Below, piece by piece: positions 1,310 to 61,900 of a stretch of 64,000 nucleotides of DNA. Position numbers and translations under genes: made by a program. Source of the DNA: Macrolepiota albuminosa (Eukaryota > Basidiomycota > Agaricomycetes > Agaricales > Agaricaceae). The notes beneath the pieces were generated by a model that made no database searches, had not been told where the DNA came from, and saw only the letters and a list, made by a program, of their open reading frames with translations. Location of the stretch: NCBI GenBank assembly GCA_027475525.1, contig JAMWFC010000091.1, forward strand, positions 248,001 through 312,000, read 5' to 3'. Position 1 is the first letter of the stretch; each line of letters opens with the position of its first letter.

Positions 1310-2456
1310 TGATAGGCTTCTACTCGGACTGAGCGCATCAAGGGACATTATAGGCCAACCAACACTTGACGTATTCAGGACTCTAGCGACCAGTTGAGAA
1401 TATAGAGCAGCTCTAGCTCTTGCAAATTACTACAGGATGTGGAAACTTATCCTAACCCCTAGCTACCAGGCCTACAGCGCACTCCTTTCACCTAGCCCAA
1501 GGACGAAGGAGGCTCATAACGTATAGCGCTAACACAACGGCGGGAGAGGACTATAACTAAACCCCGATCACTTCCAGAAGGAGCCAGCAGCAGGCGCTGC
1601 CATTGGACGAGGCACTTCAATCAGAAGTCTAAAGGGATCAATGACGGCGGCACTGGATATACTTAAATCCGACATCTGGACCTGATAGGAACTAATACAA
1701 TGAGTAGCGCTGACATTAGCGCTCACAGCGTCTGTCGAGGATTTTCCGACCATACCCCGGAACAGCCTGGCCAATCGGAGTTATAGAAAAGTGAGCAGAC
1801 TCGTACAACTCTAAGTCAATATAGAGTCACCGCAGGTCGCCGTGGGTCATAACGCCGTTGGTCGCCGTCAGCCATGTGCACAAGGTCGCCGTTGACAGGT
1901 CGCTGTTAGAGTAAACCACGAGGAGAGGCGCTAGGAGGTAGCGCCGCAGATGGACTTGTATCTTGGCAAACACGGTAGCGCACTGTATATAAAATAGCTA
2001 CTTTTCATGTATATAACAACGAATCGTAACCTCTTGAGCACCCAGTTACACTTAGCGTTCAAATCGCGCTAGCATTGCCTGACTTTGCCACCAAGTTCGG
2101 CGCTAGCTTCGTCTATCTCGTCTTCGTCGTTTACAGTGCCACCTACGGGCACGGCCTGACTTTGCCACCAAGTTCGGCGCTAGCTTCGTCTATCTCGTCT
2201 TCGTCGTTTACAGTGCCACCTACGGGCACGCTACGCTGCACTATTTGTTTATTTCTCTATAACTTCTCCTAAGCTACGACGCTTACCACTTGCTAGGTAG
2301 CACCCGAGGCGCTATCGTCTAGCGCATCGCCCTATCACCTCTGCTCGAGCACACCGGGACCCTGCCGGGACTCCTCACAAACCCGTACGCCAGGCGCTGG
2401 AGACGGCATTGTACTGCGTATACGTCCAGCGCACCCAACCACAGTTGGCGTCATCA
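1310..2456 (+). mobile_element. Solo LTR, family B copy 1 (1147 bp, TSD GCGC)
   Basis: The sequence starts TGATAGGCTTC and ends GCGTCATCA (5'-TG...CA-3') and is flanked by GCGC at 1306-1309 and 2457-2460. It is the inverted counterpart of 5990-7060. A TATA-like TATATAAAAT lies at 1985-1994, so the plus strand is probably the sense strand. No internal retrotransposon sequence accompanies it, as expected for LTR-LTR recombination. It is longer than copy 2 mainly because of a 77-bp duplication at 2077-2230. Confidence 0.85.
2077..2230. repeat. Perfect 77-bp tandem duplication (1 of 10)
   Basis: Units 2077-2153 and 2154-2230 are identical. The related LTR at 5990-7060 has a single copy. This is one of ten duplications with the same 77-bp period in the window and is probably an assembly join. 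Confidence 0.9.
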
Positions 2457-2590
2457 GCGCCATCCAGCCTGGCATTGATGACAAAGGATTGGGACGAGTG
2501 GGACTAGAGTCCGGGGGGTGGTGGGGGCCCATCTGGGGGGTCCTTTGAGGTAGGGTCTGGAGAGCGGAGAATGTCGAAAAGGAGTTGCTG

Positions 2591-3150
2591 GTCATTGGAC
2601 GTCAGGTCCTGGGTCAGGCAAAGGGTAAGATGTCACCAATTGATGCGGGGGTTGGTGTCTCGGAGCCACAGGAGCCCTAAGACCAGGGGTGTGGAAGAGT
2701 GGAGTTTGGTTATCAATATCCGGAGGGTGTGAGTTTGTCTGTTGGCAAAAGTAACGGGCATACATACAAAGTGAGTAATGTCCCCCACCATAGAGGCATC
2801 TCCGTTGAAGAGGCAGAGCCACACCGGGACCGGGAGTCACTGAGCGGGTTCTGGGGCTAAGGTAGACAATGCCTCATTGATGAAGTTGTCTGTGGCGCCA
2901 CTGTCAACGAGGGTGTTAAGGGGAATTCTGGAGGGGGTGAGATGGGTGTTGAGGAGGAGGGAGTGCGAGGAGTGGGAGGGTAGGTAAGCCATGAGGGTGT
3001 CCTGTGCAAGTGTCATGGAGCAAAGATGGGAAACTGGGGCAGAGAAGATGTCAGGGTCGATTCCGCAATTTAGGGCATCTTCTGGGTCTAAATCACTGGG
3101 TCGTTTTCCAAATACTCGTAGGTGGCATGTCCCATAACCTGTTGTTGGGG
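2591..3150 (-). pseudogene. Gypsy-A first aspartic protease segment
   Basis: The minus strand encodes LVDSGATDNF near 2880-2910, the Asp-Ser-Gly active site of retropepsin-like proteases. Further on, in another frame, it encodes GLLWLRDTNPRINW near 2635-2680, the conserved end of the domain. At least one frameshift separates the two motifs, and another separates the segment from the zinc knuckle at 3151-3192. This protease lies upstream of a second, better preserved one (344-2590). The element therefore either carried two protease domains or is a chimera of two related elements. Confidence 0.7.
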
Positions 3151-4838: not shown

Positions 4839-5551
4839 TCACATGAGGCAATCCCCAAATTTGACCAAGCAATGGGCCCAGTCCTCTGGAGTGCCTTCAA
4901 AGTCGTCGTGTCCAAATTCTGTGAGCAGCACCCTTGCCTGTTGCATGAAGTCCTCTGGCAAGATCCTGAGTGAGCAGAGCACTTTGTCCCATTGCCGTTT
5001 GTACTCCTCGAGGCGTCGTTGTCCCATTGGTGAGGGAGGGGTCCGAGTGGGTGGGGCAGCAGCTGGGTAGTGACAAGGGGGATAGTCAGGGTGGGGAGGT
5101 CCCCAGGGTTGGGGAACAGGGCACTGGTAGCCATAGTAGGGGGTGGGTGCAAAGGGGCCCTTGCTGAGGGGAATTGGGCGAGGTCCACTGGGAACTGGTG
5201 GGGTCTCCGGCAGGCCCCCAGGGATGCTCCGGTATGAGGGGACCTCCACGGGTCGTGCCATGGCTAAGTTGGGCGGAGGGGCCCAGCTGGCTGAGGGGGG
5301 ATGCTCCGGTATGAGGGGACCTCCACGGGTCGTGCCATGGCTAAGTTGGGCGGAGGGGCCCAGCTGGCTGAGGGTCCCAGATTATAGAGGGATGGGTCAG
5401 GGACCCAGTGGCGGTGGAGATACTGGGGTTCATATGAGAGAGGTGGATAGGCGGGGCGGGGGGTCTGTGCAGAGTAAAGATCGGAGACCGGATGTCCGTA
5501 AGAGTCGGTCTGGTAGCCTGTGGGGTAGTAGGTATGAGTATACGTAGCCAT
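4839..5551 (-). pseudogene. N-terminal part of the Gypsy-A Gag reading frame
   Basis: A minus-strand ATG at about 5551 opens a frame rich in Tyr and Pro (MATYTHTYYPTG at its start). A helical segment follows (RRLEEYKRQWDKVL) and the frame stops after GDCLM at 4839. The codons after this stop read EELLEL and continue in the same frame toward Gag, so the stop looks like an Arg CGA changed to TGA. A 77-bp duplication at 5221-5374 splits the frame. The likely role is the N-terminal domain of Gag just downstream of the 5' LTR. I do not recognise a named domain. Confidence 0.55.
5221..5374. repeat. Perfect 77-bp tandem duplication (2 of 10)
   Basis: Units 5221-5297 and 5298-5374 are identical. The duplication lies inside the Gag N-terminal frame and shifts it. 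It has the same 77-bp period as nine others in the window. Confidence 0.9.
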
Positions 5552-15444: not shown

Positions 15445-16743
15445 ATGTCGCGCACCCCGACACATTCCCTGATGCCCCTGCCCACCAACAAAGTTGCATC
15501 TTTAGTCGTGTGGGAGGCCCAGGATGGCCGGTATCGGCGCCGCCTGGATTGGGAGCGTGTCGCGGCGCTCTTTCAGCAATGTAGGTGTATCCACGTGCTT
15601 TTTGCTTGGCACAATCAACCTCCCTTTTTAGAACAACAAAACGCACCTGCCCCGGAGGCGGGACCCAGTCGCCTGCCGGAGACTGCCCCAGAGGCAGGCC
15701 CGGCCAGTCCCCCGCTGTCGGTTCCCGTGGCAGTTCCTCAGGCGGGTCCCAGTCGTCCCGTGCCTACTGTCCGGCCTCCCTGCCCTCCCCCTTCACCTTG
15801 CCCCCGCTTGGTCGCCCCACGTTTTTGTCGGTCGGGGATGGCCTCTGGTACCATATCGGTGGTTCCAGAGGATCTGCGTATCCCGTGGGCCATCGTGTCG
15901 CAGTCGGCGTTTGAGCAGGCCCTTGAGAGGCTCTGGGGGTTGCCCACCCATGTGTGGTGCGTTAGTAACGGGCCGGTAAGTGACCTCGCACCTTGTGGCC
16001 ATCGCTAATGTCAACCCAGTGTGTGCACTGTGCTTGCCAGTTGGTGCCGTGTCTCTTCGAGGCCTCCAGCCCGTCGTCCCAGAGAGACTCATCGGTGTGC
16101 GAGGCATGTCGTGACAATCATGAGCGCTGTTCCGTTTCGGCTTTATGGAGGGCGCGTTGCATGGCACGGGAGCAGGGGTGGCCGTTGGGGGGGGGTGACA
16201 CGCCGGATGGGGGTGGAGGAGAGGGACTGGGTGGTCGAGCCACCAGTGGGAGCGTCGGGGGGTTCTGGGGGAAATGGGGCCCCGACAAGGGGGTCTCGGG
16301 TCAGGAGGGCAGCGGGGGTGGGGAGTTGGAGCCGGCCCGTGGTCCTGGTCACGTGCCAGGCAACCCAGGCTGGGGCAAGCGGGGAGGGTCATGTCGACAA
16401 GGGGAAGCGGCAGGCGTCGCCCAGTCCTTTCTCCGGGCCTTCCAAGCGGCCACAGTCCTCCCAGGAGGCCCCTTCCCCGACCCCTCCTCTGCGTCTGTCC
16501 CCGGCGGCCTTCTCCCCCTTGTTGGGGCGGCCGCTGGGTGCGGACATGACGGCGCTGCAGGAGCGCATGGACCGGGCCGAGCGGGAGAGGCAGGAGCTGG
16601 CTGACCATCATCAGGTCACGGCCAAACATCTACGGGGAGTTCGAGCGACCCTGGCTTGGACTGAGGAGGCGGTGAGGCAGGAGGCAGCAGCTTGGCGGTG
16701 GGTGGAGGAGGACCGGGGGGCAGCAGCTCGGGAGTTACAGGAG
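15445..16743 (+). pseudogene. Zinc-finger/coiled-coil protein gene, frameshifted and cut by a Helitron
   Basis: An ATG at 15445 opens exon 1 (177 codons). A 44-nt GT-AG intron at 15976-16019, with a CTAAT branch-like site, joins in phase 0 to an exon starting CVHC-x6-C. A second Cys cluster (CEACRDNHERC) follows, giving a C-x2-C-x6-C plus C-x2-C zinc-binding pattern. Next come a Pro/Ser-rich stretch and a heptad-like coiled coil (LQERMDRAERERQEL to the end). The zinc finger and coiled coil are in different frames, and the switch falls near the G run at about 16184-16195. The reading ends at ARELQE, where the Helitron array begins. The pattern suggests a nucleic-acid-binding, oligomerising protein of transposon or host origin. 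No named family is recognised. Confidence 0.55.
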
Positions 16744-16785
16744 ACGAGCTACGATTCGTGCCTTCGGCACGAATTTCGTAGCTTG

Positions 16786-16819
<34 letters not shown>

Positions 16820-16893
16820 GACGAGCTACGATTCGTGCCTTCGGCACGAATTTCGTAGCTTGTTGGGGGCTTCGCCCCCAAACCCCCCCCAAC
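16740..16893. repeat. 77-bp-offset repeat with 31-G homopolymer (3 of 10)
   Basis: The 53 bp starting at 16740 recur exactly 77 bp later at 16817. The rest of the first unit is a run of 31 G at 16788-16818. The offset equals the nine other duplications. The G run looks like a sequencing or gap artefact rather than genomic sequence. Confidence 0.8.
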
Positions 16894-16987
16894 TAAGCCT
16901 CCACCCTAACCGTGCCTTCGGCACGAATTTCGTAGCTTGTTGGGGGCTTCGCCCCCAAACCCCCCCCAACTAAGCCTCCACCCTAAC
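16834..16987. repeat. Perfect 77-bp tandem duplication (4 of 10)
   Basis: Units 16834-16910 and 16911-16987 are identical. They duplicate half of the Helitron 3' hairpin and the GGGGCTTCGCCCC palindrome. Helitron-2 has one copy at the equivalent place. Confidence 0.9.
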
Positions 16988-17457
16988 CGAACGAAGTGAG
17001 GTTAGGGCTCCAAGTATGTATAAGTAACTTACCCTCCACCCCAACCTCACTTCGTTCGGTTAGGGCTCCAAGTATGTATATAAGTAACTCAGCCTTCACC
17101 CCAACCTCACTTCGTTCGGTTAGGGGTTCCAAATATGTATATTCATAACTCAACTTCTATCATGACTTACTTTCATTATGTCTTACTGATTCAAGCATAT
17201 GTTGTTAAAGAATAGAAAGTTCACATTTATCAAGAAATGATGTTACAATTCCAAGTTATATATATTCTATTAGTACAGTATCAACAAATATCAAGTTAGA
17301 TGCTAAAATATAAAAGTCAGTAATAAGTAGGTAATTAACAATCATACTCACATTTGTAAACCCAAAAAATAATGCTACAATTCCAAGTTATATGTACAGT
17401 ATCAAGTTAGATGCTAAAATATAAAGTTAGTAATAAGTATATAATTAACAATCACAC

Positions 17458-19008
17458 TTACATTTGTAAACCATTAAGAACTTCTTGATACACAATATTT
17501 GCAGTCGCTCTTGATGTATTTTCTTCTGACAAAATCACCTTGATACGATCTCCTGATGTGCATCGAGAAAGTGCAACATAGAGTTGGCCATGTGTAAAAA
17601 CTGGTGATCGAAGGTCCAATCCAACATGCTTGACTGATTGCCCTTGAGACTTGTTGATAGTCATAGCAAAGGCCAATCGAATTGGAAACTGTCTCCTGCG
17701 TAATGGTATGGGCAAATCCTCTTCAGAGGCATCTAGATTGATCCTTGGAATCAAAACAGTTGAACCTGCAAACTTGGCATCTCCACTGATAATATGACAT
17801 CTGAGGACTCTAGTGCTGATATGAGTGACAATCATTCTTGTTTCATTGCAAAGTCCTTTGGTTGTGTCCAGATTCCTGAGGAGCATGACAGGAACTCCAA
17901 TCTTCAAAGCCAGTTTAGCCAAAGGCAAACTACTGGCTTTCAAAGAGTTGAGATATTCCACAGGATATAAGGCAAGGCCATCAGGATTCCTGTTATCAGA
18001 GAGAACAGAATCTGCACTCTGTAAGATCCTTTCTTCACAGGATATAAGGCAAGGCCATCAGGATTCCTGTTATCAGAGAGAACAGAATCTGCACTCTGTA
18101 AGATCCTTTCTTCCCTGGATACCTCTCTAGAACTTCTGCATTGATCTCCTCTATATCCGAGTTCTTGCCAGAGAGAATAGTCCGGTCCAGATAATACTGA
18201 TCATTTTGAGGATGACCAATATCAGGATATGTGGAAGAAATCAATCCAGTGATAGAATTGTCATCACAGATCATCCTTTCAGGCAGTTTGACTGTTTCTC
18301 CAGGTCCTAGATTTTTCCCTGCACCAACATCCAACAACCAAGCTGCATGAGCAATATTGTCTACAGTCTGCTCCAACCGCATATTTTGGACCAAGTAATG
18401 GACTTGAATATTATCCCAAAGTCGGCCCCTTTTGAGTGAAGCAGCAATCATCTGCTGTCTGAGTCCATGTGGAACCACTGGAAGAGTTTGCCTAAAGTCC
18501 CCTCCAAAAACCACAGTGACTCCACCAAAGGAAATGTCATTATCGAAGATGTCTCTGAAGCCACGATCGACAGAGTCAATGGCATTTTTGTGTTGCATTG
18601 GAACTTCATCCCAAATAACAACTTTGGTGCGAAGTATGAGCTGTGATAACTGAGTTCCTCTCTTGATATTGGCAATGGATGTGTCAAGAGCAGGAATGGG
18701 AATTTTGAATCTTGAATGAGCTGTCCTACCCCCTTCCAACAATAAGGCAGCAATGCCAGATGATGCTACACATAATGCCACATCTCCATGGGAACAAACT
18801 GCAGCAGCCAGAGTATTGCAGACAAAGGTTTTGCCACATCCTCCAGCACTGTGAATGAATAGCATCCTGCCCAAATTGTTGTTCACTGAGTTTATGACAG
18901 CATTGAAAGTCTCCAGTTGTTCCACATTGAACTTGGCCTTGTTTTCCTCCACTCTTTGCTTGAGGTCCTCAACATCATAATTAGTTTCATCTTCCAAAAG
19001 TCTATTGC
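17458..19008 (-). pseudogene. Helitron-1 Pif1-like helicase exon, interrupted as assembled
   Basis: This last exon of the Rep-helicase gene encodes a superfamily 1B Pif1-type helicase. It has Walker A AGGCGKTF, Walker B VIWDEVPM, the GGDFRQTLPVV motif, and the C-terminal block NKSQGQSVKHVGLDL with VALSRCTS. It is joined to Rep by a 51-nt intron (19059-19009). The homologous exon at 25695-27169 is intact. Here the frame breaks at the 77-bp duplication 17959-18112, which is followed by one missing C relative to copy 2. In the family this domain unwinds DNA during rolling-circle transposition. If the duplication is an assembly join, the real gene may be intact. Confidence 0.85.
17959..18112. repeat. 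Perfect 77-bp tandem duplication (5 of 10)
   Basis: Units 17959-18035 and 18036-18112 are identical and lie in the helicase exon. Helitron-2 has a single copy (about 26195-26271). Confidence 0.92.
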
Positions 19009-19059: not shown

Positions 19060-20306
19060 CTGGAACTATATTCCAATTCTGTTGAGCCTCTGGCATGTTG
19101 GGAAAGTCTTTCAGAGTTTTCCCAAAATTCATCAAAGTGTCATTGATGAGATAAAGGCCATAGTCATAGACATCCTCATTGGTAAAGACTCGGTCCCTGT
19201 ATTGCCTAGTATGTTCCAATCTGTGTCGAAGATCATCACAGATAGAATGTTTGAATTCATCCCATAGAGCCTCAGGAGTGGCAGGAGCACAGTGGAATAG
19301 AATAGTGCAAAACAGCTGCCTGAGAGCTGATCCTAGTTGGATTGGAGCAGCTTCAGTGAGACACTGCCTCCATTCTGCATCATCCTCCAAAAGACCTAGA
19401 GCCTTGCATGCTTCTTGATAAGTGGGATAGATATGGCCATTGACTGTCCTGAGATCAGCCCATGAAGTTGCATTGGTTACAACAGTCAAGAGCATCCTGA
19501 GATAGAACCTTTCTCCCTGTCTTGGTGAAGCAAAATACATCCTTCCAATTGCTGTCCCTCTCTGCCTCTCCTTCCAACTCCGTTTAGATGCCCCTGTCTT
19601 GGTGAAGCAAAATACATCCTTCCAATTGCTGTCCCTCTCTGCCTCTCCTTCCAACTCCGTTTAGATGCTCATAAACAAACTTGGTTGGAAAGTTCTGATA
19701 AGTGGTGTTATTATTGGGAAACCTGGTATTGGCTTCAAACCAAGCTGTGAGTGCAGTCTTGTCTGCATTAGGTCTAGCAGCCACCACCTGTATTGGTTCA
19801 TCATCTGGGAAATAGACTTCATGCTGGTTTTCCAAGTGCACAGGCAATCTGTACACTGAAGGATATTCAGCATGCATGTTGAATTCAAAGATGTGCCAGC
19901 AAGCCTCAGGAGCAGAAATGTATCTGGCATCCAAGTGTTCCTTGATTTCATCCCTCTCCTCCCTAGCAATCTCCAAAGTTGTCCTATCATGGCCCTTGTA
20001 GATGTACTTGTGAATGTATTTGATTGCATCCACTGAAGCACAGACTTTCACATTGATATGACATTGAAATTTGGCTGAGAGATATGGATTGTATGGGACA
20101 ACATTACGATTGTCATAACGACGACCATGCTTTTCAAAAAAGCGGCCATTGTTAGGTCTGGCATATTGGGGATAGCCATCATCACCATACTGTGTAGCTT
20201 CCTGAAATTCCTTGGGATATCTCTTGGAACATTTGCCATCTACCATGCACTTGGCATTGGGAAAATCTGCTCCACATGGACCATGAACCATATTGGTAGT
20301 AACAAC
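19060..20306 (-). pseudogene. Helitron-1 Rep C-terminal exon with the two-tyrosine motif, interrupted as assembled
   Basis: The exon lies between introns 19009-19059 and 20307-20356. It begins VVTTNMVHGPCGADF and contains the Helitron tyrosine motif KYIHKYIYKGHD, with two Tyr separated by three residues; these form the covalent DNA link in the family. The frame is lost at the 77-bp duplication 19515-19668, which is followed by one missing T compared with copy 2. Copy 2 (27221-28391) is otherwise nearly identical and open throughout. Confidence 0.85.
19515..19668. repeat. Perfect 77-bp tandem duplication (6 of 10)
   Basis: Units 19515-19591 and 19592-19668 are identical and lie in the Rep C-terminal exon. 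A single copy occurs in Helitron-2. Confidence 0.92.
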
Positions 20307-22931: not shown

Positions 22932-23085
22932 CATCCTTCAGGCAAATGAGTTTGAGGAATGACAATAGCAAATGGATCCTGAGCAATAGGCATATCTCCA
23001 GACCCTCTCATCCTTCAGGCAAATGAGTTTGAGGAATGACAATAGCAAATGGATCCTGAGCAATAGGCATATCTCCAGACCCTCT
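22932..23085. repeat. Perfect 77-bp tandem duplication (7 of 10)
   Basis: Units 22932-23008 and 23009-23085 are identical. The duplication shifts the N-terminal exon of Helitron-1. Confidence 0.92.
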
Positions 23086-24809: not shown

Positions 24810-24963
24810 AATTTTTCTTGAATTTTTCAGATTTCTTTAAGCATTTATAAATCTCAGAAAAACTCAAGTCAGTGTATCAGTAGGGCAATTTTTCTTGAAT
24901 TTTTCAGATTTCTTTAAGCATTTATAAATCTCAGAAAAACTCAAGTCAGTGTATCAGTAGGGC
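24810..24963. repeat. Perfect 77-bp tandem duplication (8 of 10)
   Basis: Units 24810-24886 and 24887-24963 are identical and lie in non-coding Helitron sequence. Confidence 0.9.
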
Positions 24964-45445: not shown

Positions 45446-45478
45446 TCTAAAGCAACACGTAGACGACGTGTATTGGGA

Positions 45479-45500: not shown

Positions 45501-45671
45501 AGTCTCCCAACTCCGCCAGTGGTGTAAACAACCACAAACACACGCCACCCGGCGCCGCGTCGGCGATCATAATCGCCTAAATAGTTACAATCACAGCCAC
45601 ACTTAGTGGCCACCCGGTCATTTACCGGCAATCAAAGTGGACTTCGTCCACATTCCACCACCACACGCGCA

Positions 45672-48600
45672 TTACGCGCGTTTTGCTAGCTGCTGAGGGC
45701 GTTTCACGCCCTGCAGCTCTAGATACCTGTCCATCGCTGCAAGGTCTTTGCAGTTTACTAGCGGTTCCCAGGTAGTATCACCTAAGCTCCACCTTACCTC
45801 GAATTCGAGGCTTCCCCTTGTCCAACGATGACCTATCAGGTCATCTACGAACCACTCCTGGTCATTACCAGTTCCAAAATCATACGGCTCCGGAGTTGCT
45901 CGATTAGGAAAGAGCGCATCACTACTGGCCATATATGGTCGCAATAGCGACACATGAAATTTGGGGACTATCCTACGCGCTTGCAGCGCATGGGGTAGTT
46001 CCAGCACGTAGTTCGACGTACTCGGCTCCGCTTCAAGGACCTTATACGGTCCAATCCACTTTGGACACAACTTACTCGCTCTGCCTTTCGGCAGGTTCAG
46101 GTTCTTCGTAGAAAGGTACACTAGATTCCCTTTCTCGATTTCTGGTTCCTCACGTCTGCGACTATTCGCGTGTTTGGTTTGCCAGACGCGCGATTCTATA
46201 ATCGCATCATGGGCATCTGCCAGATTCCTTAGCGCGTTGCGCGCAAACTGCTTGACTCCCACATGAATAGCTTCGTCCGTACGAAGTTCACGAATCATGG
46301 ATGGCATGTAGCCATTGTTGAGTTCAAAGGGTGAGTACCCTGTAGTCTCTGATATGCTCGCATTTATCGCGAATTCCACGAGTGGGCATCTATCCACCCA
46401 GTCCTTCTGGTCAGGACGTACGAATGCTCGCAAGATCTGTGCGATATTTCTATTCGCACGTTCCGTTTGACCATCCGTTTGCGGATGAAACGATGTCGAC
46501 ATGAGCAACTTTGCTCCTAGCAGTTTGTGCAACTCCTTCCACCATTTGGAAGTAAACTTAGCATCTCGATCGCTCACGATCGAGCTGGGCAGTCCATGGA
46601 GACGTACTATCTCCTTGAGATAGATCCACGACAAGTCTGACGCGGTCATGGTGGTTCTCACCGGAATGAGATGGACCATACTGGTCATTCTGCAGATGAC
46701 TACCCACAGGTAGTTAAAGCCTTTCGACTCGGGGAACGGACCTATAAAGTCCATCCCAATCGAATCCCAGGGTTTGACCGGGATGGGTAGCGAATGCAGC
46801 TTTCCTGGTGGCTTCAAAGTCGACACTTTCGACTGTTGACATAGCTCGCATGTCGAGCAGAATTGGCTCGTCTCTTTGGCCATTTGCGGCCACCAGTACC
46901 AGCGTCGCACGTAGTCCAGCGTTTTCTGAGTTCCGAAGTGGCCCACCACTGTGTGGGCCTGATCCAGGATAGTCGTAATTAACGACCTCTCCCGGGGGAT
47001 GCAGATGACTTTGGACCCCGCGGGTCTGATAAGGTAGATGAGCTGTTGCTCCACCTTGAAGCGCGGGTGCGCTTGGATATTGTTCAGAATCTCTACGCAG
47101 AGATTATCACCCTTGTATCCCTGTTGGATACGTGTGCGGAACTGCTCATTGCCTAGGTCGGCCGGTGCAGGAATATGGTCTTGTGACTCCAATGCTTGCT
47201 GGAGCGTCATCTCAGCACCTCTCGTAGGCACCTCTTGCCTCGTCTCTTCACGAAGCTGAGGGGCCGCATGCTCCAGCAATACCTGGGCTTCGATATCGCG
47301 AATTTCTCGCTGTTCGTGCAGTCGCTTACTGCGACGTGTTTCCTGCGCTCGCATGGCGCGTAGCTCGACCCTATGTTCCTTGATTTCGTGGAACCGATGC
47401 AGGGGCAAGTCTTCGCCTTCGGGGTCAATACGTTTGTCCGCCTGGACATAGTCATGCGCGTCATGGACGTCATCTCGAGTATCACTCTCGAAATATCGAG
47501 ACAGGCAGTCTGCGACTTTGTTCAATTCACCCTTCACATAGGTGATGTCGAACTGATACCGCGACATGTAGTCGATCCAGCGACGTTGCCGCGGAGATAG
47601 GTGCACCTGAGTCTTGAAAAACTCTAGTGCTTTATGATCCGTAATGATATGGATCTTGTATCCCATCAGTTTATCCTCCCATTTTAGGAGGGCTTCCAGG
47701 ATAGCGAGTGTTTCTAACTCGTGTACAGCATAATTCTGCTGGGCAGCAGTGAATTTACGGGACATAAACCCCGCTGGTCGGCAAGTTTGCCATGTTTTAC
47801 CCTGGCCAAACATGGCCCCAACCCCAGTCTTCGACGCATCGCAAATGAGCCAGATGGGCTCGTCGATGCGTGGGTCAATTGGCCGGATGACCGGCGTTTT
47901 CGCGCATATGCGCTTAATCATCTCAAAACACCGCTGATGCAGCGGTCTCCAATGAAACGGTGACCCATTCTGGGTCATGGCCATAAGTGGCCCAGTGTAT
48001 GCAGTGATGTCTGGCAAGAAATTGCCAATATAGTTCACCAGTCCGACAAATCGTTGGATATCGTTATACGTGCGTGGAGTACGCCACTCTCGGATTCGGT
48101 CGAGCTTATCCGTATCAGGATGAATGCCCTTCTCGTCAATGACGTGACCGAGACAATCTATACTCGTTGCGTACAACTCGCACTTCTTCCATTTGAGATA
48201 GAGGCTGGCCTTCCGTAGTCGTTCAAATACGACTCGTAGGTGCTGCTCATGCTCCTCAATGGAGTCAGAAAATATGAATATATCGTCTAAATAGACGTGC
48301 ATGAACTTCCCGATTACATCTCGGAAGATTGAGGTCATTAACCTCTGAAATGTCGCCGGTGCATTACAATCACCAATCTGCATGATGTTACTCACGAACG
48401 TCCCCATCAGGGACGAGAACAGTGTCTTCGGTATATCCTCTTCGCGGATGCGAACCTGTTCGTACGCGTCTGTGAGGTCGATTTTCGACCGATACTTCGC
48501 TGTCGCAACATCTTCTCGTATCACTTCCTGATCTGGAAGAGGTGTTACATCCTTGACGGTATTATCATTGCGCTGTCGCGCGTCCAATGCCGTCCGCAAC

Positions 48601-49583
48601 GTTCCATCCTTCTTGGGGATACAAAGCAATGGTGCAGCTTGCACCGCTGGTCGTGGTTCCCACCACTTCGCGTTTATGTATCTATTCGTCTTTTCACGAA
48701 GTTGATCCTGAAGTGCTCGCGGACAGCGAGGCAAATGATACTTGTACTGCTTGTTATCGTCAATGAGGTTGATCTCATGATTAACCTCCCGCCACGGAGG
48801 AAGCTCCTCCTTCGTTCCATTGACGATATCAGCAAACTCCCGTTGCCATTGCTGGCGCAATCGAGGAATATCCTCCTCTGTAAGGCTCAAAGCCTTGCCT
48901 TTTCCTTTGACTACGCGTGCTACACGCGGCTGAACCTTTGGCTCAAATCGCTCCCGTAAGGCACGTACGTGCTCTTCTATGAGATCTCCCGGGTTCAACC
49001 TTACAACGGGTTGTCTACCCCCCACTCTCGTCGCACTTAACGACGACTGCACGCTTCTCGCTTTCAGCGAAAGCCCATCCAGTACGATATCCACTGTTTC
49101 GGATATCTCATCCTCTCGTGCATGACGGTACACTTCCCCCGTCTGGGTCGCCTGCCCCCGTCCCATGGTCTGCGTCACCATTGACGCCACCAATTTGTTC
49201 CACTCTCGTGGCATACGTGGGTCATACGCCCATTGCACTCCTGGCCGTGGCACTGGTCGATCCATTAGCGACCTAGTGCTACCCACAGTTCCCATCGTAC
49301 TGTATACCTCGTCCTCGACGAGATCCTCCACCTTCACTCGAGAGCTAGTCGGCTGGCATTCCAGCGACTCCACCACGCGTTTACTACGCTCATTCTTGCA
49401 CTGCGCAGCCTGTTTAGGCTTTCCATTGGTACACCCAGTCACATCCGGGTGCTTCCCCGTCTTCAGAGTTCCTTGGAACTCTTCCTCAGTCATCAGTATA
49501 GCCGGCGAATCAGCCGGCAGGCTTTTCGGTGGGGCCTGTTCGTCCTCCACCTCCTGTACAGTCGCTCTCCTGCGACCATCTAG
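45672..49583 (-). CDS. Chromovirus Pol (RT, RNase H, integrase, chromodomain)
   Basis: Numbering from the GTG at 49550, RT spans about residues 280-460 with the catalytic YLDD at 420-423 (48282-48293). RNase H has CDASKTGVGA, HELETLAIL and TDHKAL. Integrase has the zinc-binding H-x3-H...C-x2-C (HTVVGHF, CSTCELC) and acidic residues in DFIGPFP, SDRDAKF and QTERANR. The C-terminus has a chromodomain (EWFVDDLIGHR...FEVRWSLGDTTWEP). The frame is the same as Gag-protease and is separated only by the UGA at 49584-49586. The first ATG is about 20 codons after the GTG, so Pol is most likely made by readthrough. The chromodomain suggests targeting to marked chromatin. It appears complete. Confidence 0.93.
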   Translation of the reverse strand, partial: LDGRRRATVQEVEDEQAPPKSLPADSPAILMTEEEFQGTLKTGKHPDVTGCTNGKPKQAAQCKNERSKRVVESLECQPTSSRVKVEDLVEDEVYSTMGTVGSTRSLMDRPVPRPGVQWAYDPRMPREWNKLVASMVTQTMGRGQATQTGEVYRHAREDEISETVDIVLDGLSLKARSVQSSLSATRVGGRQPVVRLNPGDLIEEHVRALRERFEPKVQPRVARVVKGKGKALSLTEEDIPRLRQQWQREFADIVNGTKEELPPWREVNHEINLIDDNKQYKYHLPRCPRALQDQLREKTNRYINAKWWEPRPAVQAAPLLCIPKKDGTLRTALDARQRNDNTVKDVTPLPDQEVIREDVATAKYRSKIDLTDAYEQVRIREEDIPKTLFSSLMGTFVSNIMQIGDCNAPATFQRLMTSIFRDVIGKFMHVYLDDIFIFSDSIEEHEQHLRVVFERLRKASLYLKWKKCELYATSIDCLGHVIDEKGIHPDTDKLDRIREWRTPRTYNDIQRFVGLVNYIGNFLPDITAYTGPLMAMTQNGSPFHWRPLHQRCFEMIKRICAKTPVIRPIDPRIDEPIWLICDASKTGVGAMFGQGKTWQTCRPAGFMSRKFTAAQQNYAVHELETLAILEALLKWEDKLMGYKIHIITDHKALEFFKTQVHLSPRQRRWIDYMSRYQFDITYVKGELNKVADCLSRYFESDTRDDVHDAHDYVQADKRIDPEGEDLPLHRFHEIKEHRVELRAMRAQETRRSKRLHEQREIRDIEAQVLLEHAAPQLREETRQEVPTRGAEMTLQQALESQDHIPAPADLGNEQFRTRIQQGYKGDNLCVEILNNIQAHPRFKVEQQLIYLIRPAGSKVICIPRERSLITTILDQAHTVVGHFGTQKTLDYVRRWYWWPQMAKETSQFCSTCELCQQSKVSTLKPPGKLHSLPIPVKPWDSIGMDFIGPFPESKGFNYLWVVICRMTSMVHLIPVRTTMTASDLSWIYLKEIVRLHGLPSSIVSDRDAKFTSKWWKELHKLLGAKLLMSTSFHPQTDGQTERANRNIAQILRAFVRPDQKDWVDRCPLVEFAINASISETTGYSPFELNNGYMPSMIRELRTDEAIHVGVKQFARNALRNLADAHDAIIESRVWQTKHANSRRREEPEIEKGNLVYLSTKNLNLPKGRASKLCPKWIGPYKVLEAEPSTSNYVLELPHALQARRIVPKFHVSLLRPYMASSDALFPNRATPEPYDFGTGNDQEWFVDDLIGHRWTRGSLEFEVRWSLGDTTWEPLVNCKDLAAMDRYLELQGVKRPQQLAKRA

Positions 49584-49586
49584 TCA
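49581..49586 (-). promoter_or_regulatory. Leaky stop codon UGA-CUA between Gag-protease and Pol
   Basis: On the minus strand Gag-protease ends AAC TGA CTA and the same frame continues open into Pol. UGA followed by CUA is an established high-readthrough context. The lack of a nearby Pol ATG supports its use here. Confidence 0.7.
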
Positions 49587-52500
49587 GTTGCGCTCATCAC
49601 GCCGCTTTTCAGTTGCGCGATAGCGCCTCAAACGACCATCTGTATCGTTCAACACCACTTTCTCCGCCTTCAGAGGCGTACCATTCACAACGACCATGTC
49701 GTTCACGAAATCCAGCGACACCTTGTTCTTACGCATGAACGGCGTACCGATAATCATGTCATAGCGATCAAAATTCGCTATATCCACATATTCCTTCGTC
49801 GACGTTCCTGACGTCTTTATTCTCACCTCCGCGCCAAACTGCACCATAGCGCGACTCCCCACAGTCCCCAGCTGGAGCATCAAGGGCTCCTCCAGTTCAT
49901 GAACGCGAATCGCGTTGACGTGAGCAAACTGGGGCGTAATGCCCGTAGTGGTACTCCCGGAGTCCCACAACGTCCATGCCGGATGTCCATTGACATCAAC
50001 ATACGTGACCAGGCACTCCTTCTCTTCGGGAGTATAGCGTGGCCTCTGCAATTTATTAGTTGCTTTCTGCAGGGTTACACGTCTCATTCGGACACGCTGA
50101 TCCCCATGGCACTCCGTCAGTGCAAACAGATGTTCTTCCTCGTCATCACGAGCGTAATAGTCGCTGTCGTAGACGTCCACTGCGACGTATTCGTCGCCAT
50201 CAATCTGGACGCTCTCAGCGTCATCCACTTCCGACCCGTCAGCCTCTACTTGCGGCTCCTCCTCGATTTCATCGACGATTTCATCGTCCTCGTCGTCACT
50301 GACGACATCGCTCGGTGCCGCAGCCGTATGGGCCGCTCGGATGTGTGCCTTAGGAGGGGCGGGACACTCCTTAGCAAAGTGCCCGCTCCTGCCACAATTG
50401 TAGCACGCTGAGGGGTCCCCGGCAGGCCTTCTCTGGCCCACTCCTGGAGCTCCAGCGGTTTTACCCGCCATACGTGCTGCAGGCGCCACTACTCCTCTTG
50501 GTGCTACTTGATTCTGACCCGAAACGGGTCGACTGTCCTTCGCTGGCAATTGTCCAGCAGGTTTCGATCGAGGCCGTTGGCCTCCAGGAATTGTCTTGCG
50601 CACCACGAATCGCGGATTGCGATTGTTCTCCATCTCCGTCCGCTTGGCTAGGAAGGTTCCCACCTTCACTGCGTGACGGGTCACTGGTCCTCGGCGTGAA
50701 CTACGCTGCTCATAATGGTTTGCAGTCCGTGTCGACTGCTCATAACGGATGGCATACGCCAAAAATTCAGTCACAGTGTTGACCTCCGGAGACAAGTTAT
50801 CGTCGCGTATCAACGCTCTCCTCATGTCTGCGGGTATTCCGTCCAGGAATGTCTCGCGGATAGTGTATTCGTCTGGATAGACGGCCATATTCTGTGCATG
50901 ACCCACAAGGTCATCATAAAAGGTCTGGACGCCAGTCTTAGCGTCATACACTGCCTTTCTAAAGGCATCGCGAGCTTCCTGCATCGTAGCAGCGTTAACG
51001 AACCGATTATACAGTCCTATCAGGACCTCTTTAAATGTCCAGTGCGATTTGTCGCGATTAATGTGGAGAACATGGCGACGGAACCAATTCCGAGCCTCTC
51101 CTTCCATAAATTCGTGTAGCACGAATATCCTTTCCTGGTCCATGTCGTCTCCACCATAGCAGCAGGCTGCGAGGTGGTAGCACACGTCCATGGCCCAGTC
51201 CTCCAGTTGCGAGAACCTATGTCCTCCAGCGTACGCACGTATGTGCTTACCATCGGATTTACGGGGGCTTACCCCAGCAGGGAACTTAAATCTGACTCCA
51301 AGGGAGTCATCCACCAGACGAGTGAGGCGGTCATGCATATGATCCATATGGATCCTGACCGCTTCATTCATTCCCAGCGTAGTTTCACGCAAATCATGAG
51401 GTGCAGGCATCGAGAATGCCCGAGGACTGCGAAACAGGTGCTCATTGACCACTCTTTCCGGCCGTGCGGGGGGCTGTTGCCTCACTTGTTGCTCCGCTGG
51501 TATTCCACCAGCCTGCCTGCCTCTGTCACGACGATTATTATCGTCCTGATCGTCATTCCTACGATCACGATCTCCACCGTCGTGATTGCGACGATTTGGC
51601 TCCCTACGTTCGTAGTGACCACTACTGTCGTCACTACCACCCGGATCTCTGTCCGGTTCAGCAGTCCGAGCCGCGAATTGTCGCCGCATGTCATCGACAG
51701 GCGTTACGCCCTCACGCCCTTCAAAGACTACCCCCTGGTCGTCAATGAACGACTCACCATGATCGCGCAAATCCTGGTTGCGTATCCTTTGGTAATTGAC
51801 GCGTTCATTCCAGTTGTCCACTAGGTGGACGCGTCGCACTACGCGTTGTGGTCGCGTTCGCTCCTCAAGAATGTGGACTTCGTCCACCTCTTCCTTGATT
51901 GTAACTTGCTTACGAGGTGTTTTAACCTCCTGCACTACAAGTGCTGCCTCTGGCTCTGCCGGAGTCGTCGTTACCGTCTCCACCTCCGACAATGCCTGCT
52001 GAGGCACTCCGCTAACAATGCGTTGACGGTTTGCGGCGTTCTGACGCCGAATGTAGTCTTGCTGAGACTCATTAGCCTGACGAGGCGCATTGAGCAATTC
52101 CATCGCGTCCGCGATTAGTGGCGCTCGTCTGCGCACACTCATCTCACATTCTACGGAGTCGGCTGGAGTAGCCGTTGAGACTGCTGACCCTCGCGCCGCT
52201 TTGCGCTTAAGGTATTCCACTACTTCGAGTTCGAAGATGCGCACAAACAATTCGATATATTCACTCGAATCTGCACGGGGTACATCGTGGCTCCTAGCCG
52301 CCAGCAACTGTAAGTGCTTCACTACATAAAGCTGAAGACGCTTTCGCGTCGATTCCTTCACGACCGCCGGATATCGGTCCAATACTAGCTGCAACTGGAT
52401 AGACAAGGTCGAATGCGACCTTTTGCTTTCCTCATCATCTGAGGACTCCAACTCGGACTCTAAGTCCATAACTCTCCTGAGGCCGTCATGCCTCACTTGC

Positions 52501-53084
52501 GGCTGTTTGCCGGCTCGTCGGTGCAACTCTGGACTTCCAGGCGTTGTTAACGCCTTGTCCAACCTTACGACATTGTCGTCTTCCCTACTGACCACTATTG
52601 CTGGTCCTTGCTTCTGTACTTGTGTCGTCAATGACGACGGTCCCGGTTCAGTGGCAGCATTGGCCACATATTCCAAATGCCGTTCCGTAGGTGCAGTCCG
52701 GAATGGGGTGCTATGCGCAAACGCGCTGCCTTGTACCATTTCCGAGTACTGGGTAACGTCCGGTTGACCCTCCGAGGGAGCTGAAGAGCTCTCGGGCAAT
52801 ACCGGATACATTAGTGAGGGCATTTGGCTCGCTGGCAGCGACACTCCTGAGACCGCGGATCTATCTCCTGGTTTTCCACCAGGTCGTACAATGGACATCA
52901 TCCGTGATACGGATAGCCCACCAGGCATTCCATAGCTCGCGCTGACATCGCGAGGGGTCTTTTCGTCCCGCTTTGGCGGGGGTTGGTATGCTGACGCAGA
53001 TTGCGTCTTCACAGCCTGAAGCACAGGTAAGTCACCTGCGTCTGCAGCTGAGAACGGAGGATCCGGATCAAGAGAGCCAGTCAT
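49584..53084 (-). CDS. Chromovirus Gag-protease (1166 aa)
   Basis: The ATG at 53084 (MTGSLDPDPPF) opens a frame with a long variable N-terminal region. A capsid-type retrotransposon Gag domain occupies about residues 600-830 (LEDWAMDVCYHLAACCYGG, FMEGEARNWFRRHV, YDDLVGHAQNM). A zinc knuckle, CYNCGRSGHFAKEC, is near residue 895 and an aspartic protease with LWDSGST near residue 1040. The protease is therefore in the Gag ORF, upstream of the UGA, so it is made at Gag stoichiometry. An Arg/Asp-rich stretch (about residues 500-570) precedes the capsid. The start is supported by homology to the relic copy at 63105 onward. Confidence 0.92.
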   Translation of the reverse strand: MTGSLDPDPPFSAADAGDLPVLQAVKTQSASAYQPPPKRDEKTPRDVSASYGMPGGLSVSRMMSIVRPGGKPGDRSAVSGVSLPASQMPSLMYPVLPESSSAPSEGQPDVTQYSEMVQGSAFAHSTPFRTAPTERHLEYVANAATEPGPSSLTTQVQKQGPAIVVSREDDNVVRLDKALTTPGSPELHRRAGKQPQVRHDGLRRVMDLESELESSDDEESKRSHSTLSIQLQLVLDRYPAVVKESTRKRLQLYVVKHLQLLAARSHDVPRADSSEYIELFVRIFELEVVEYLKRKAARGSAVSTATPADSVECEMSVRRRAPLIADAMELLNAPRQANESQQDYIRRQNAANRQRIVSGVPQQALSEVETVTTTPAEPEAALVVQEVKTPRKQVTIKEEVDEVHILEERTRPQRVVRRVHLVDNWNERVNYQRIRNQDLRDHGESFIDDQGVVFEGREGVTPVDDMRRQFAARTAEPDRDPGGSDDSSGHYERREPNRRNHDGGDRDRRNDDQDDNNRRDRGRQAGGIPAEQQVRQQPPARPERVVNEHLFRSPRAFSMPAPHDLRETTLGMNEAVRIHMDHMHDRLTRLVDDSLGVRFKFPAGVSPRKSDGKHIRAYAGGHRFSQLEDWAMDVCYHLAACCYGGDDMDQERIFVLHEFMEGEARNWFRRHVLHINRDKSHWTFKEVLIGLYNRFVNAATMQEARDAFRKAVYDAKTGVQTFYDDLVGHAQNMAVYPDEYTIRETFLDGIPADMRRALIRDDNLSPEVNTVTEFLAYAIRYEQSTRTANHYEQRSSRRGPVTRHAVKVGTFLAKRTEMENNRNPRFVVRKTIPGGQRPRSKPAGQLPAKDSRPVSGQNQVAPRGVVAPAARMAGKTAGAPGVGQRRPAGDPSACYNCGRSGHFAKECPAPPKAHIRAAHTAAAPSDVVSDDEDDEIVDEIEEEPQVEADGSEVDDAESVQIDGDEYVAVDVYDSDYYARDDEEEHLFALTECHGDQRVRMRRVTLQKATNKLQRPRYTPEEKECLVTYVDVNGHPAWTLWDSGSTTTGITPQFAHVNAIRVHELEEPLMLQLGTVGSRAMVQFGAEVRIKTSGTSTKEYVDIANFDRYDMIIGTPFMRKNKVSLDFVNDMVVVNGTPLKAEKVVLNDTDGRLRRYRATEKRRDERN

Positions 53085-53376: not shown

Positions 53377-54130
53377 CTAGCCTAGGTGATTCACTCCTTG
53401 GGAACCACTGAGCCTTTGCCTATCAAATGCCTGTCTATTCTCTGCTAAACTTGGGCTATTTATACTGTTTTCCTGGTGCACAGACCACTATCTACACCTG
53501 ACTCTTTGTTGTCAACTCCCCAGCCTCCAGAACATATTTGATAGTCCAATTTCCCTTTTGGGAGGCATGTTTCGGTGCCACCAGTTCCACCATTCCTCTA
53601 GATGTCTCTGATTGCCGCTTCCCCATTTGCTTCAGCTCCATTTAGCACGATCCCATTCATAGATCCTTTTTTCCCCTTTTAGTGCTTCCCTGCATTCCAT
53701 GCTTCTTTTGACATCCCTCCATGCTTCTTTTCCTTTCCCCTTTCAGTCATGTCAAATTGGGCATTGTCAGATCTGATCTTGATCTAGATCATCACAAATT
53801 GATCCCATTTCATCACTTCTGCCAGCTCCCATGCTTCCCCTTGTCAGATCTGATCTTGATCTAGATCATCACAAATTGATCCCATTTCATCACTTCTGCC
53901 AGCTTCCATGCTTCCCCTCCCCATTACAGTGGTTGGACTATTGTTGAGTGGATAGCTTGAGCTGGTCCCTGCCCTTTGTTCTGTACTGTCTGTGTATTTA
54001 TTGGGGTGTTTTTGGAGATATAATTTGTTGAGACTGCTACCAGGAGGCTTACAGTTTTCAGCCTTATGATTAAATGTTTATTTTGACTTCTGGTGCATGT
54101 TGTGTCTCTGACTGCTGGTACAGCGTCATA
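53377..54130. other. Unassigned relic DNA right of the chromovirus
   Basis: No coding signal is seen. It includes a near-perfect 77-bp duplication at 53764-53918. The sequence is C- and T-rich in the plus sense and poor in CpG. Its first 45 bp resemble 41895-41940. It interrupts the LINE between endonuclease and RT. Confidence 0.4.
53764..53918. repeat. 77-bp tandem duplication with one mismatch (9 of 10)
   Basis: The period is exactly 77 bp (53765 versus 53842). The single difference is CAGCTCCC versus CAGCTTCC near the unit end. Confidence 0.88.
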
Positions 54131-58890: not shown

Positions 58891-58979
58891 GAAACTTCTT
58901 CTGTAGATATAATGGTGTGTAGGGTGAGTATATCTCTGATTGAAGTAAAAAAAAAAGCAATGATGTATATTTTCTAGAG

Positions 58980-61900
58980 CAACATCAATTAGCAGCCTAG
59001 CAATGCTGAGATCAGCTCAGCTGGGATACTTTACAACAGTCCTAGTGCATCTATTTTTAGCATGAGGCACCCTATCTTCAAGTATACTTTGCTTGCATTA
59101 TTGACTTTAAATTTCCAGAACATGTTGACTCAAAAGCGCAGAGGTGATGACTCAGATAATAGCCTATCTACTGAACATAAAGACATCAAGGTTGTTGTGA
59201 ATAAGGTATGTATTTGAAACTTAACATACACTCTGGTACTGATAATTTATACTAGAGCTACTGCCAGATATGTGAGGTACTATGCATTAATAACAGTCTA
59301 CAAACTAGTTAGATTTCTTTTTTTTAATTTCTTCATCTTTTCTAGGCTTACAGGCCTTCTTCATCACAAAGACTAATGAACCATCCCCACCTGACACCAT
59401 ATTGATGATGTTTGTAGATAGTGGTGGTGGCCCAGGAGCTGGATCATTGATCATAGAGTCTATAGGCACTGCTGGGCTTGGTGTAGCTGATGTTAATGTG
59501 TCACCAATCTGTGCCAATGCTTGACCATGACTGCTACCACCTTTGTTAGTCAAAGCCTCCACTCATTGAGCCACCTATTCCTCAAACTCATCACACATTG
59601 TCCTGTAGAAGTGGGTGGTGTTGGATTTCCAAGCATTGAGTAAGATGTCCAGTTCAGTTGTGTGAACTGATCTTGCTGAGCATGCAAAATGTTGTCAAGG
59701 GCCAGTTTTTTGCAACCACACCATACTTTGCAGTGATATGTGAATCAAAGTTATAGTAATACATTTGGCTAATCTTTGTATTTGTCACCTCCTCTACATA
59801 GTTATCAGATAATCAAGTAGTAGATTAATAAGAAGAACATACATACTCAGCTTATATAGAATCAATGAAGATATCTCAGAACAAAGGTGTATATTCTGTT
59901 CTGCATAATTCTGCACAACAGCTTAAACCACATCAATTGATCAGAATTTGTGATTGATTATCAGAAATAATAGGCTCATACCTTGCATTCCTGATAACAT
60001 ATATGCCTCCATCCTTTTACTAATATTGAAGATGTTCTCTTTCAAGGTCAGCTCAATGAATGTCTCAACATGTTCACTTGTAGTTAGGATGCATGGGGAA
60101 GAATAATGCTTCTTATTCAATCATACAGTAAGCAGCAAAACTTTGATACCAGTCTGAGCATGCAGTTGTCAGATCTACATACATGGTGAGTGATAATACT
60201 ATCAATTATAAAGACAAATCTGGTTTGATTTCAATGCAGTGCAACAGCCAATATCATGCTTGGCTATACAGTTACACATGAAAATAAAATAACAAGTATG
60301 TGTCAACCAAAAATTAAAGATAAAAATAGAACCATGGTCCATAAATGCACCCAATCTCAATAGGGTCAGAACTGCTGCTGGCATCTGCAAAGTATTGAGT
60401 GGATATTTTAACACAAGATTATCTGCTATGTAGTGATTTTGTCAATGGGATAGAATAATTTGATACCACCAAGTCTACAAAGTTATTCCACTTACTGAAT
60501 AATGGTGCTGTGGGCACATGCAGTGATTCTGTTGATATGGAACAATGTGAGTGAGACATTCCTACATGCAAAACATGCTACATACAAAAAGACACTATAA
60601 ATACCCCTACCCTTGCAAGACAGAGTTGTGAGATTGAATTTGTAAATAGATTGACATGTTATAAACACCTTTACTCTTGCAAGATGGAGTTGTGGAAAGA
60701 GTTTCTCCATGCTGAGAGGATAATGGAGACTAGAGGTGGTGACCCAGTCCTGAACCAATGTAATTGAGGTTTGTCTTGCTGCTCATCATCAGCAGCACAA
60801 ATGATTGTTCTTTGCATGCTCAAGGCTCAGCACAGCTACCTTACTGAGATAATACAAGATCAGCCAACAAAAAGTGAATAATTGAACAGTTGTGTACTAA
60901 GGTACAAATATTCCAATGTTCTTCCCCAGGCTGACTACATAGAAGACAGAAGTGATGGCATTCATGAACTGGTACAAGGTTTGCCACTGGAAATGAAAAA
61001 AAGGTTGTGAAATGAGCACAAATGACCACCATCAACTCATGTGTCACTATGTCACTCACTCTAGAACACAAGTCAAAAAAGAATCTGTCAATAATAACTA
61101 CTTTAGTGACTCTAATTTCTGTAAGACTGTTTTTTTGAAATTCTTCAGCTTTCATACTTTTTGAACAACAGTTGAACAAATCACAAGATTGAAGGCAAAA
61201 AACAATCTTGACATTGTATACAAGTCCACAACCTAATCTATATTCAAAATGAGGTCTACCAAACCTCCAAGATCTCCCAATAACACATCATCAGCTTCAT
61301 TGTTTAAATCAGAGTCTGAGTCATTACCATCACCACAATGTATAGATCCTGAGGCAACTGCAACCATGGGCTGAGATAAAGGTAATCAGAGTCTGAGTCA
61401 TTACCATCACCACAATGTATAGATCCTGAGGCAACTGCAACCATGGGCTGAGATAAAGGTTCAGATGCAGGAGTCTGAGATGATAATTTTGATACATCTG
61501 GAGTAGGGTTGCCTGTAACTCTCTGTAACTCATACATATCTTAAATTTGGTCTGGAAGCATGCCATTAACAGCACAGCATCAATTAATAAGCTCATGCAC
61601 CTCAAAGTTCAAAGGATGGGAAGATGTTTCTGTCATCTTCTTCAAGATCTCATCAAATTTGCAATGTTTGTCAATTATGGATGTGTGCAATCATTGGATT
61701 TCTATGTTACATCAAATAATTTCTTCTTGTGCACACTGCAGATGCTGGTATTTATACATAGTCTCATGAATGACTGGATTGGCCCAGAATCTTTGATTGA
61801 TGTTATGATGTGAATGCAGGAACAAATAGAAGTCATCAAGGAAGCTATAGGCAATACCTTGGTCCAGTCTAGCATAGGTTTGCTGGACTGCAAGATTGTT

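What the first reader, a model, noticed from the sequence alone, without database searches (positions are those of the whole stretch)
2077..61460. Ten direct duplications with an identical 77-bp period: probable unmerged k=77 assembly overlaps
Direct repeats with a period of exactly 77 bp occur at 2077, 5221, 16740, 16834, 17959, 19515, 22932, 24810, 53764 and 61307. They lie in unrelated contexts (LTR, Gag, helicase, Rep, non-coding). Eight are perfect, one has one mismatch, and one runs into a G homopolymer. Biological tandem duplications would not share one length. A de Bruijn assembler with maximum k of 77 leaves 77-base overlaps at contig ends; joining without merging gives exactly this. 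Apparent frameshifts at these places should not be read as biology.
Basis: partly seen in the sequence, partly recalled or inferred. Interest (0 to 1): 0.75.

Follow-up and report, generated by a model that had tools for sequence, protein, structure and literature searches.

The report
77-base assembly duplications, not biology
Short stretches of exactly 77 bases are written twice in a row at many places in this genome assembly, almost certainly because assembled pieces that overlapped by 77 bases were joined without merging the overlap, so the duplications and the gene frameshifts they cause should not be read as biology.

Summary
In 20 other 10-kb stretches of the same 100-Mb genome, all 50 two-copy tandems of period 30-300 with at least 95% identity have period 77. 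Match lengths fit a unit of exactly 77: 30/14/5/2/1 observed against 29.2/14.6/5.5/1.8/0.6 expected.

Contig C79 carries a second, roughly 98% identical allele of at least parts of contig C44, without the duplications tested. Of 20 duplications whose 77-mer is exact in an unduplicated partner, 17 have a sequence difference directly beside it; shifted controls predict 0.62 over all 52 tested. That is where a K=77 de Bruijn graph branches.

Not explained: four of the 17 are one-base homopolymer shortfalls, not substitutions; some pairs carry mismatches (1-3 in six of 50; 8 in one elsewhere); three groups of related loci share a duplication site; one copy ends in poly-G. The program responsible is unknown and reads were not available. 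Interest as biology is low; as a data-quality warning it is useful.

The parts
2077..2230 (.). perfect 77-bp tandem duplication
   Evidence: exact run of 77 at period 77
5221..5374 (.). perfect 77-bp tandem duplication
   Evidence: exact run of 77; the closest fetched relatives L026 and L024 (about 91% on the left side) differ at the base before it, but also inside it
16740..16893 (.). 77-bp duplication whose first copy ends in extra G (31-G run at 16788-16818)
   Evidence: 53 exact bases at period 77, then G in place of the rest of the hairpin GGGGGCTTCGCCCCC
16834..16989 (.). perfect 77-bp tandem duplication (run 79)
17959..18113 (.). perfect 77-bp tandem duplication (run 78) at the end of the PIF1-helicase frame of Helitron copy A
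   Evidence: 20 of 20 fetched relatives hold one copy (exact in 2, one base different in 18) and one more C directly after it
19515..19668 (.). perfect 77-bp tandem duplication in Helitron copy A
   Evidence: one more T directly after it in L004, L006, L007, L008 and Helitron copy B
22932..23085 (.). perfect 77-bp tandem duplication beside the 15-bp array
24810..24963 (.). perfect 77-bp tandem duplication
53764..53918 (.). 77-bp duplication with one mismatch in a high-copy repeat
   Evidence: of 39 other places scored, 29 match as two pieces that overlap by about 77 bases (one copy); 10 match straight through and were not examined
61307..61460 (.). perfect 77-bp tandem duplication
   Evidence: single copy on allelic contig C79 with A/G directly before the 77-mer

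Best explanation
The duplications are an assembly artefact. Short-read contigs or graph segments built with K=77 overlap their neighbours by exactly 77 bases, and the overlaps end where the de Bruijn graph branches, that is beside a difference between haplotypes or repeat copies. At many joins the two neighbours were concatenated without removing the shared 77 bases, so each such join shows the 77-mer twice and adds 77 bases (77 = 2 mod 3, so any reading frame through it shifts). Shown: exact unit length, spike at one period, position at branch points, single copy in allele and relatives, broken frames. Inferred: that the pieces were K=77 contigs (77 is a usual top K of SPAdes for reads of about 150 bases; recalled), which program joined them, and that a later base-correction step made the mismatches.
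For: 1) 50 of 50 near-perfect two-copy tandems in 200 kb have period 77, none at periods 30-76 or 78-300. 2) Run lengths 77/78/79/80/81 = 30/14/5/2/1 against 29.2/14.6/5.5/1.8/0.6 expected for a unit of exactly 77 with random flanks; one further run of 75 (runs under 70 and 24440 left out). 3) Of 70 exact duplications in held DNA (24440 and all pairs with a mismatch left out), 52 have an unduplicated partner; in 20 of the 52 the 77-mer is exact in a partner (9.3 expected) and in 17 of those 20 a difference is directly adjacent (0.62 expected over the 52): 5 on the left, 11 on the right, 1 on both sides. By type, 13 are substitutions and 4 homopolymer shortfalls. A stricter best-partner version gave 10 of 35 against 0.14. 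4) The allele on C79 lacks all 7 C44 duplications tested (6 in L025, 1 at 61307) and has one of its own that C44 lacks. 5) The C79 allele has an open frame of 356 codons where C44 shows 144, 147 and 165, broken at the duplications at L025:1200 and L025:1588. 6) 44 of 50 sample pairs have no mismatch and none has more than 3, so there is little spread of ages. 7) The poly-G end at a GC hairpin looks like a two-colour Illumina read error (recalled).
Against: Four of the 17 adjacent differences (17959, 19515, L025:2808, L035:433) are a missing base at the start of a homopolymer. An exact k-mer graph would branch at the end of the homopolymer, so the cut is 1-3 bases off. Three of the 20 informative cases (L007:1411, L026:2200, L066:92) have no adjacent difference, and in 32 of 52 the 77-mer is not exact in any partner held, so these are untested rather than supportive; L025:4920 and L025:5346 are among them although their allele is 97-99% identical. 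Six of 50 sample pairs have 1-3 mismatches, L003:1597 has 3, and one pair, identical on C73 and C85 (L062 and L063, 460 of 460 bases), has 8. Three groups of related loci carry the duplication at one and the same site: L011:6968 with L066:382 and L067:219; L005:1494 with L006:1494; L002:1597 with L003:1597. A shared graph node would give this, but so would a shared event. The poly-G copy is 77 long yet not identical to its neighbour. No reads, no assembly graph and no record of the method were available.
Confidence: 0.88

Rival explanations
1. A different technical cause with the same constant: a polisher, phaser or gap filler that cuts the sequence at called differences (left-aligned indels) and re-inserts 77 bases of anchor or context before or after the difference, leaving the difference in place.
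For: The homopolymer cases fit a left-aligned variant position better than an exact graph node. Differences adjacent on the right outnumber those on the left, 11 to 5.
Against: The other 13 of 17 adjacent differences are substitutions, which fit a graph node equally well. Both sides occur within one stretch of about 2 kb: L025:1200 and 3340 left, 1588 and 2808 right, so the process is not one-directional. Paper searches turned up no program described with this fault (listings, and passages of three papers).
Confidence: 0.09
2. Real biology: a process that makes tandem duplications of fixed length 77 next to a mutated base, for example replication stalling at a lesion, restart 77 bases back, re-copying, then error-prone bypass that leaves a substitution or a minus-one slip.
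For: A mutation directly beside the copy on either side, including minus-one changes in homopolymers, is what such a process would leave. The allele lacks the duplication. A few pairs carry mismatches and three groups of relatives share a site.
Against: No process known to me measures exactly 77 bases. Copies within a locus are identical in 44 of 50 sample pairs and differ at 1-3 bases in the rest, and none of 7 tested is shared with the other haplotype at about 2% divergence. An estimated 25,000 (12,500-38,600) events genome-wide (non-random sample) would nearly all have to be newer than that. A gene is broken at two of them in one haplotype only.
Confidence: 0.02
3. Ordinary minisatellites or a 77-bp repeat family that happens to be common.
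For: The window does hold true minisatellites, including a decayed array of period about 77 at 31835-32097.
Against: The 77-mers listed in the window are unrelated in sequence and in two copies, and single in the alleles and relatives aligned.
Confidence: 0.005

Closest known systems
[quoted passage not shown] 2021, PMC8081667 (passages seen)
   Same: The same locus is written twice in tandem because branching graph paths share an overlap that was not removed; the length equals a technical overlap length.
   Different: [quoted passage not shown] here it is exactly 77 bases and no gap lies between them.
Contig-end overlaps created by SPAdes, which Unicycler removes before output (PMC5481147, passages seen)
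   Same: Neighbouring graph segments share end sequence that must be trimmed before joining.
   Different: Here the trimming seems not to have happened at many joins; that this assembly used SPAdes is inferred only from the number 77.
False gene gains from duplication errors, Ko et al. 2022, PMC9516828 (passages seen)
   Same: Errors cluster at boundaries of heterozygous and homozygous sequence and disturb gene models.
   Different: Those examples concern whole genes or exons; here very short units that shift reading frames.

Membership tests
False homotype duplication at contig boundaries | sequence duplicated in the assembly but single at the locus | tested here: met
   single in the C79 allele for 7 of 7 tested and in 20 of 20 fetched relatives at 17959; assembly-level proof only, no reads
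False homotype duplication at contig boundaries | length set by an overlap length of the assembler | tested here: inconclusive
   one exact length, 77, which suits a K=77 overlap; that the assembler used K=77 could not be checked
False homotype duplication at contig boundaries | lies where graph paths branch | tested here: met
   17 of 20 informative cases have a difference directly adjacent, 0.62 expected over 52; 4 of the 17 are homopolymer shortfalls offset from an exact node
False homotype duplication at contig boundaries | gap (N) between the copies | tested here: not met
   the copies abut directly; the only N run in the 20 stretches, L028:7283-7382, has no 15-mer shared across it
False homotype duplication at contig boundaries | low read depth or read-depth gap at the duplication | not testable with these tools
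   no reads held
Unmerged K=77 SPAdes overlap | assembly made with SPAdes, top K = 77 | not testable with these tools
Biological tandem duplication | spread of unit lengths and of divergence between copies | tested here: not met
   one length, and 0-3 mismatches in all 50 sample pairs; one pair elsewhere has 8
Biological tandem duplication | some events shared by descent between alleles or relatives | tested here: inconclusive
   0 of 7 C44 duplications present on C79; but three groups of related loci share a site and L062/L063 share an imperfect pair, which shared graph nodes would also give

The most novel reading that the evidence does not exclude
A real mutational process in this organism that stalls at a damaged base, goes back exactly 77 nucleotides, copies that stretch again and then passes the damage with an error, leaving a 77-base tandem duplication directly beside a substitution or a one-base homopolymer loss.
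Probability: 0.01. Interest if true: 0.95.

Novelty: not a real feature. Interest (0 to 1): 0.15.

Why it matters
Anyone using this assembly will find thousands of false frameshifts, false tandem repeats and split genes. The rough estimate is 25,000 sites (12,500-38,600) and about 1.9 Mb of extra sequence (from a non-random sample of 5 contigs). Counts of broken transposons, pseudogenes and minisatellites from this genome should be discarded or redone. The signature (a spike at one tandem period, exact unit length, copies beside heterozygous sites) gives a read-free test that could be run on any assembly.

Tried and rejected
Shared insertion sites as a sign of inheritance: continuous BLAST matches through the duplications at L011:9793 and L011:6968 suggested that some relatives carry the same duplication. 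In register, four relatives of the first (L062-L065) have theirs 34, 34 and 12 bases left and 31 bases right, so not at the same site. For the second, L067 sits in the same register with one mismatch between its copies and L066 holds the same exact 77-mer; L068 lies 85 bases away and L069 was not placed. In L005 and L006, which are 97% identical there, each locus's two copies are identical while the 77-mer differs between the loci, which speaks for separate events at one branch site rather than one old event. The identical imperfect pair of L062 and L063 (8 mismatches) is not explained.

Scaffold gap: the 100-N run in L028 shows no shared 15-mer across it.

Finding a haplotype partner failed for L019 and L020, which have no close second copy, so those 8 duplications stayed untested.

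Identifying the organism and its assembly method: Pfam hits are mostly transposon proteins plus an AIR synthase, an RRM and a weak CCCH finger below its cut-off. That it is a basidiomycete-like fungus is my impression from recall, not a test. Paper searches for the genome gave no match, nor did the first one for the fault.

Early reading of a one-directional polisher: given up once duplications with the difference on the left were found.

Full report
OBSERVATION. A scan of the window for exact tandem runs found period-77 runs at every coordinate given: eight perfect, 53764 with one mismatch and 16740 running into a G homopolymer. An eleventh, at 24440-24593, was missed because it lies inside a 60-bp array whose register it breaks. 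The window is C44:248001-312000 of a 100.1-Mb genome in 129 contigs. I fetched 20 stretches of 10 kb from 5 of the 129 contigs at round coordinates. In them every two-copy tandem of period 30-300 with at least 95% identity has period 77: 50 of 50, spread over 12 of the 20 stretches. The bootstrap over stretches gives about 25,000 for the genome (12,500-38,600), but the stretches were not drawn at random and the counts are clustered (variance/mean 3.6).

UNIT LENGTH. If the repeated unit is exactly 77 and flanks are random, matches extend by chance with probability one quarter per base. The 53 duplications with runs of 70 or more in window plus sample (24440 left out) have lengths 77:30, 78:14, 79:5, 80:2, 81:1 and 75:1, against 29.2, 14.6, 5.5, 1.8 and 0.6 expected for 77 to 81. 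The length is fixed to the base.

SINGLE COPY ELSEWHERE. Around 17959, 20 of 20 fetched relatives of the Helitron (one of them the window's own Helitron copy B) have one copy of the 77-base stretch, exact in 2 and one base different in 18; 19 of the 20 pieces hold no period-77 pair at all and the twentieth, L035, has one at another place. They were 20 of the 39 other places scored. The seven loci that match the duplicated query in full (L002-L008, chosen by that match) carry period-77 pairs at other offsets. Helitron copy B (25.0-31.4 kb) has none of the period-77 duplications that copy A (16.7-25 kb) carries and shows one copy at the sites matching 17959 and 19515. Parts of contig C79 are allelic to C44, in inverted order at about 98%. 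The C79 allele lacks the six duplications of L025 (C44:101-105 kb) and that at window 61307, and has one of its own that C44 lacks. An open frame of 356 codons on C79 (L049:3309-4379) is split on C44 into frames of 144, 147 and 165 codons at the duplications at L025:1200 and L025:1588. In the window, the PIF1 frame of Helitron copy A ends inside the duplication at 17959 (18035-18997, 320 codons), whereas copy B has 472 codons with a further Pif1 domain.

BRANCH-POINT TEST. A K=77 graph breaks at 77-mers that are directly followed or preceded by different bases in different copies. Of 70 exact duplications in all held DNA, 52 have an unduplicated partner there and 18 do not. In 20 of 52 the 77-mer is exact in a partner (9.3 expected from 77-mers shifted along the same alignments), and in 17 of these 20 a difference is directly adjacent. 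The shifted controls predict 0.62 over the 52. Five differences are on the left, eleven on the right, one on both sides. The earlier, stricter version with only the best partner gave 10 of 35 against 0.14. Partners differ in closeness: many are transposon relatives at 81-96% identity, in which an exact 77-mer can hardly be expected. The set includes loci fetched because they matched a duplicated query (L002-L008), which does not bear on adjacency. The edges of the 17 show 13 substitutions and 4 homopolymer shortfalls; the substitution at L004:506 was only seen.

WHAT DOES NOT FIT. At 17959, 19515, L025:2808 and L035:433 the adjacent difference is one missing base in a homopolymer that starts directly after the 77-mer. 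An exact k-mer graph would branch at the end of that homopolymer. Either the missing base is a separate consensus error, or the cut came from an alignment with left-placed gaps; this keeps open a technical rival such as a polisher or phaser with a 77-base context. L025:4920 and L025:5346 have an allele at 97-99% but their 77-mer is not exact in it. Six of 50 sample pairs have 1-3 mismatches; among the other loci L003:1597 has 3 and the pair in L062 and L063, two places with identical sequence over 460 bases, has 8. Three groups of related loci have the duplication at one site: L011:6968 with L066 and L067, L005 with L006, L002 with L003. A branch site used several times explains this without inheritance, since in L005 and L006 the 77-mer differs between loci but not within them; it is not proof. 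At 53764, 10 of 39 other places match straight through and were not examined. The first copy at 16740 is 77 long but ends in G where the second copy has a GC hairpin, which looks like an Illumina poly-G error (recalled).

BIOLOGY CONSIDERED. A real process would have to measure exactly 77 bases, act about 25,000 times, leave almost no aged copies and, in the 7 cases tested, none shared between alleles that differ by about 2%. The best biological story (stall, 77-base step back, error-prone bypass) would explain the adjacent mutations, and I keep it as the novel reading at 1%. The transposon contexts do not explain the pattern either: duplications also occur in stretches with no second copy in the assembly (L020; L019 apart from one short repeat). 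L020 also holds frames with an RRM and an AIR synthase domain.

KNOWN KIND. Rhie et al. 2021 (PMC8081667, passages seen) describe false homotype duplications from overlapping sequences at contig boundaries where graph paths branch. Unicycler (PMC5481147, passages seen) removes contig-end overlaps created by SPAdes. Ko et al. 2022 (PMC9516828, passages seen) find false duplications at boundaries of heterozygous and homozygous sequence. The present case differs by its exact 77-base unit, absence of gaps and density. Searches turned up no report of this particular fault, and 44 and 55 no paper on this genome; that is a statement about those searches only.

VERDICT.

Noticed in passing
   Followed up: yes
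window 16788-16818: Run of 31 G at a GC hairpin, exactly completing a 77-base copy; looks like a two-colour Illumina poly-G error.
   Followed up: partly
L025, L049, L050, L051: C79 carries a second haplotype of at least parts of C44 (about 98%, inverted order), and C54:456290-457822 looks like one of C107:300600-302300 (96-98%), so the 100-Mb assembly holds some regions twice.
   Followed up: partly
window 16700-31400: Two neighbouring Helitron copies (PIF1 helicase and Helitron_like_N); the left one carries the cluster of 77-base duplications, the right one none.
   Followed up: partly
window 17959, 19515; L025:2808; L035:433: One-base homopolymer shortfall directly after the second copy, relative to the partner compared; not explained by a plain unmerged join.
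   Followed up: partly
L062 and L063 (C73:1314541-1315000, C85:107546-108010): Two places identical over 460 bases share an imperfect period-77 pair with 8 mismatches, the only such worn pair found outside the window.
   Followed up: partly
L005:1494 and L006:1494; L002:1597 and L003:1597: Related Helitron loci with the 77-base duplication at one and the same site.
   Followed up: partly
window 31835-32097: Decayed tandem array with period about 77 (78% matches); looks like a true minisatellite, apparently a coincidence of length.
   Followed up: no
window 42512-53084: Gypsy-type LTR element with long open frames (zinc knuckle and protease; reverse transcriptase, RNase H and integrase) and no 77-base duplication inside; a third frame (42512-45631) has no Pfam match.
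   Followed up: no
window 23087-23303: 15-bp minisatellite CCCCCAGTTTGTATT, about 14.5 copies, directly after the duplication at 22932.
   Followed up: no
L028:7283-7382: A gap of exactly 100 N; no 15-mer shared between the 400 bases on either side.
   Followed up: yes
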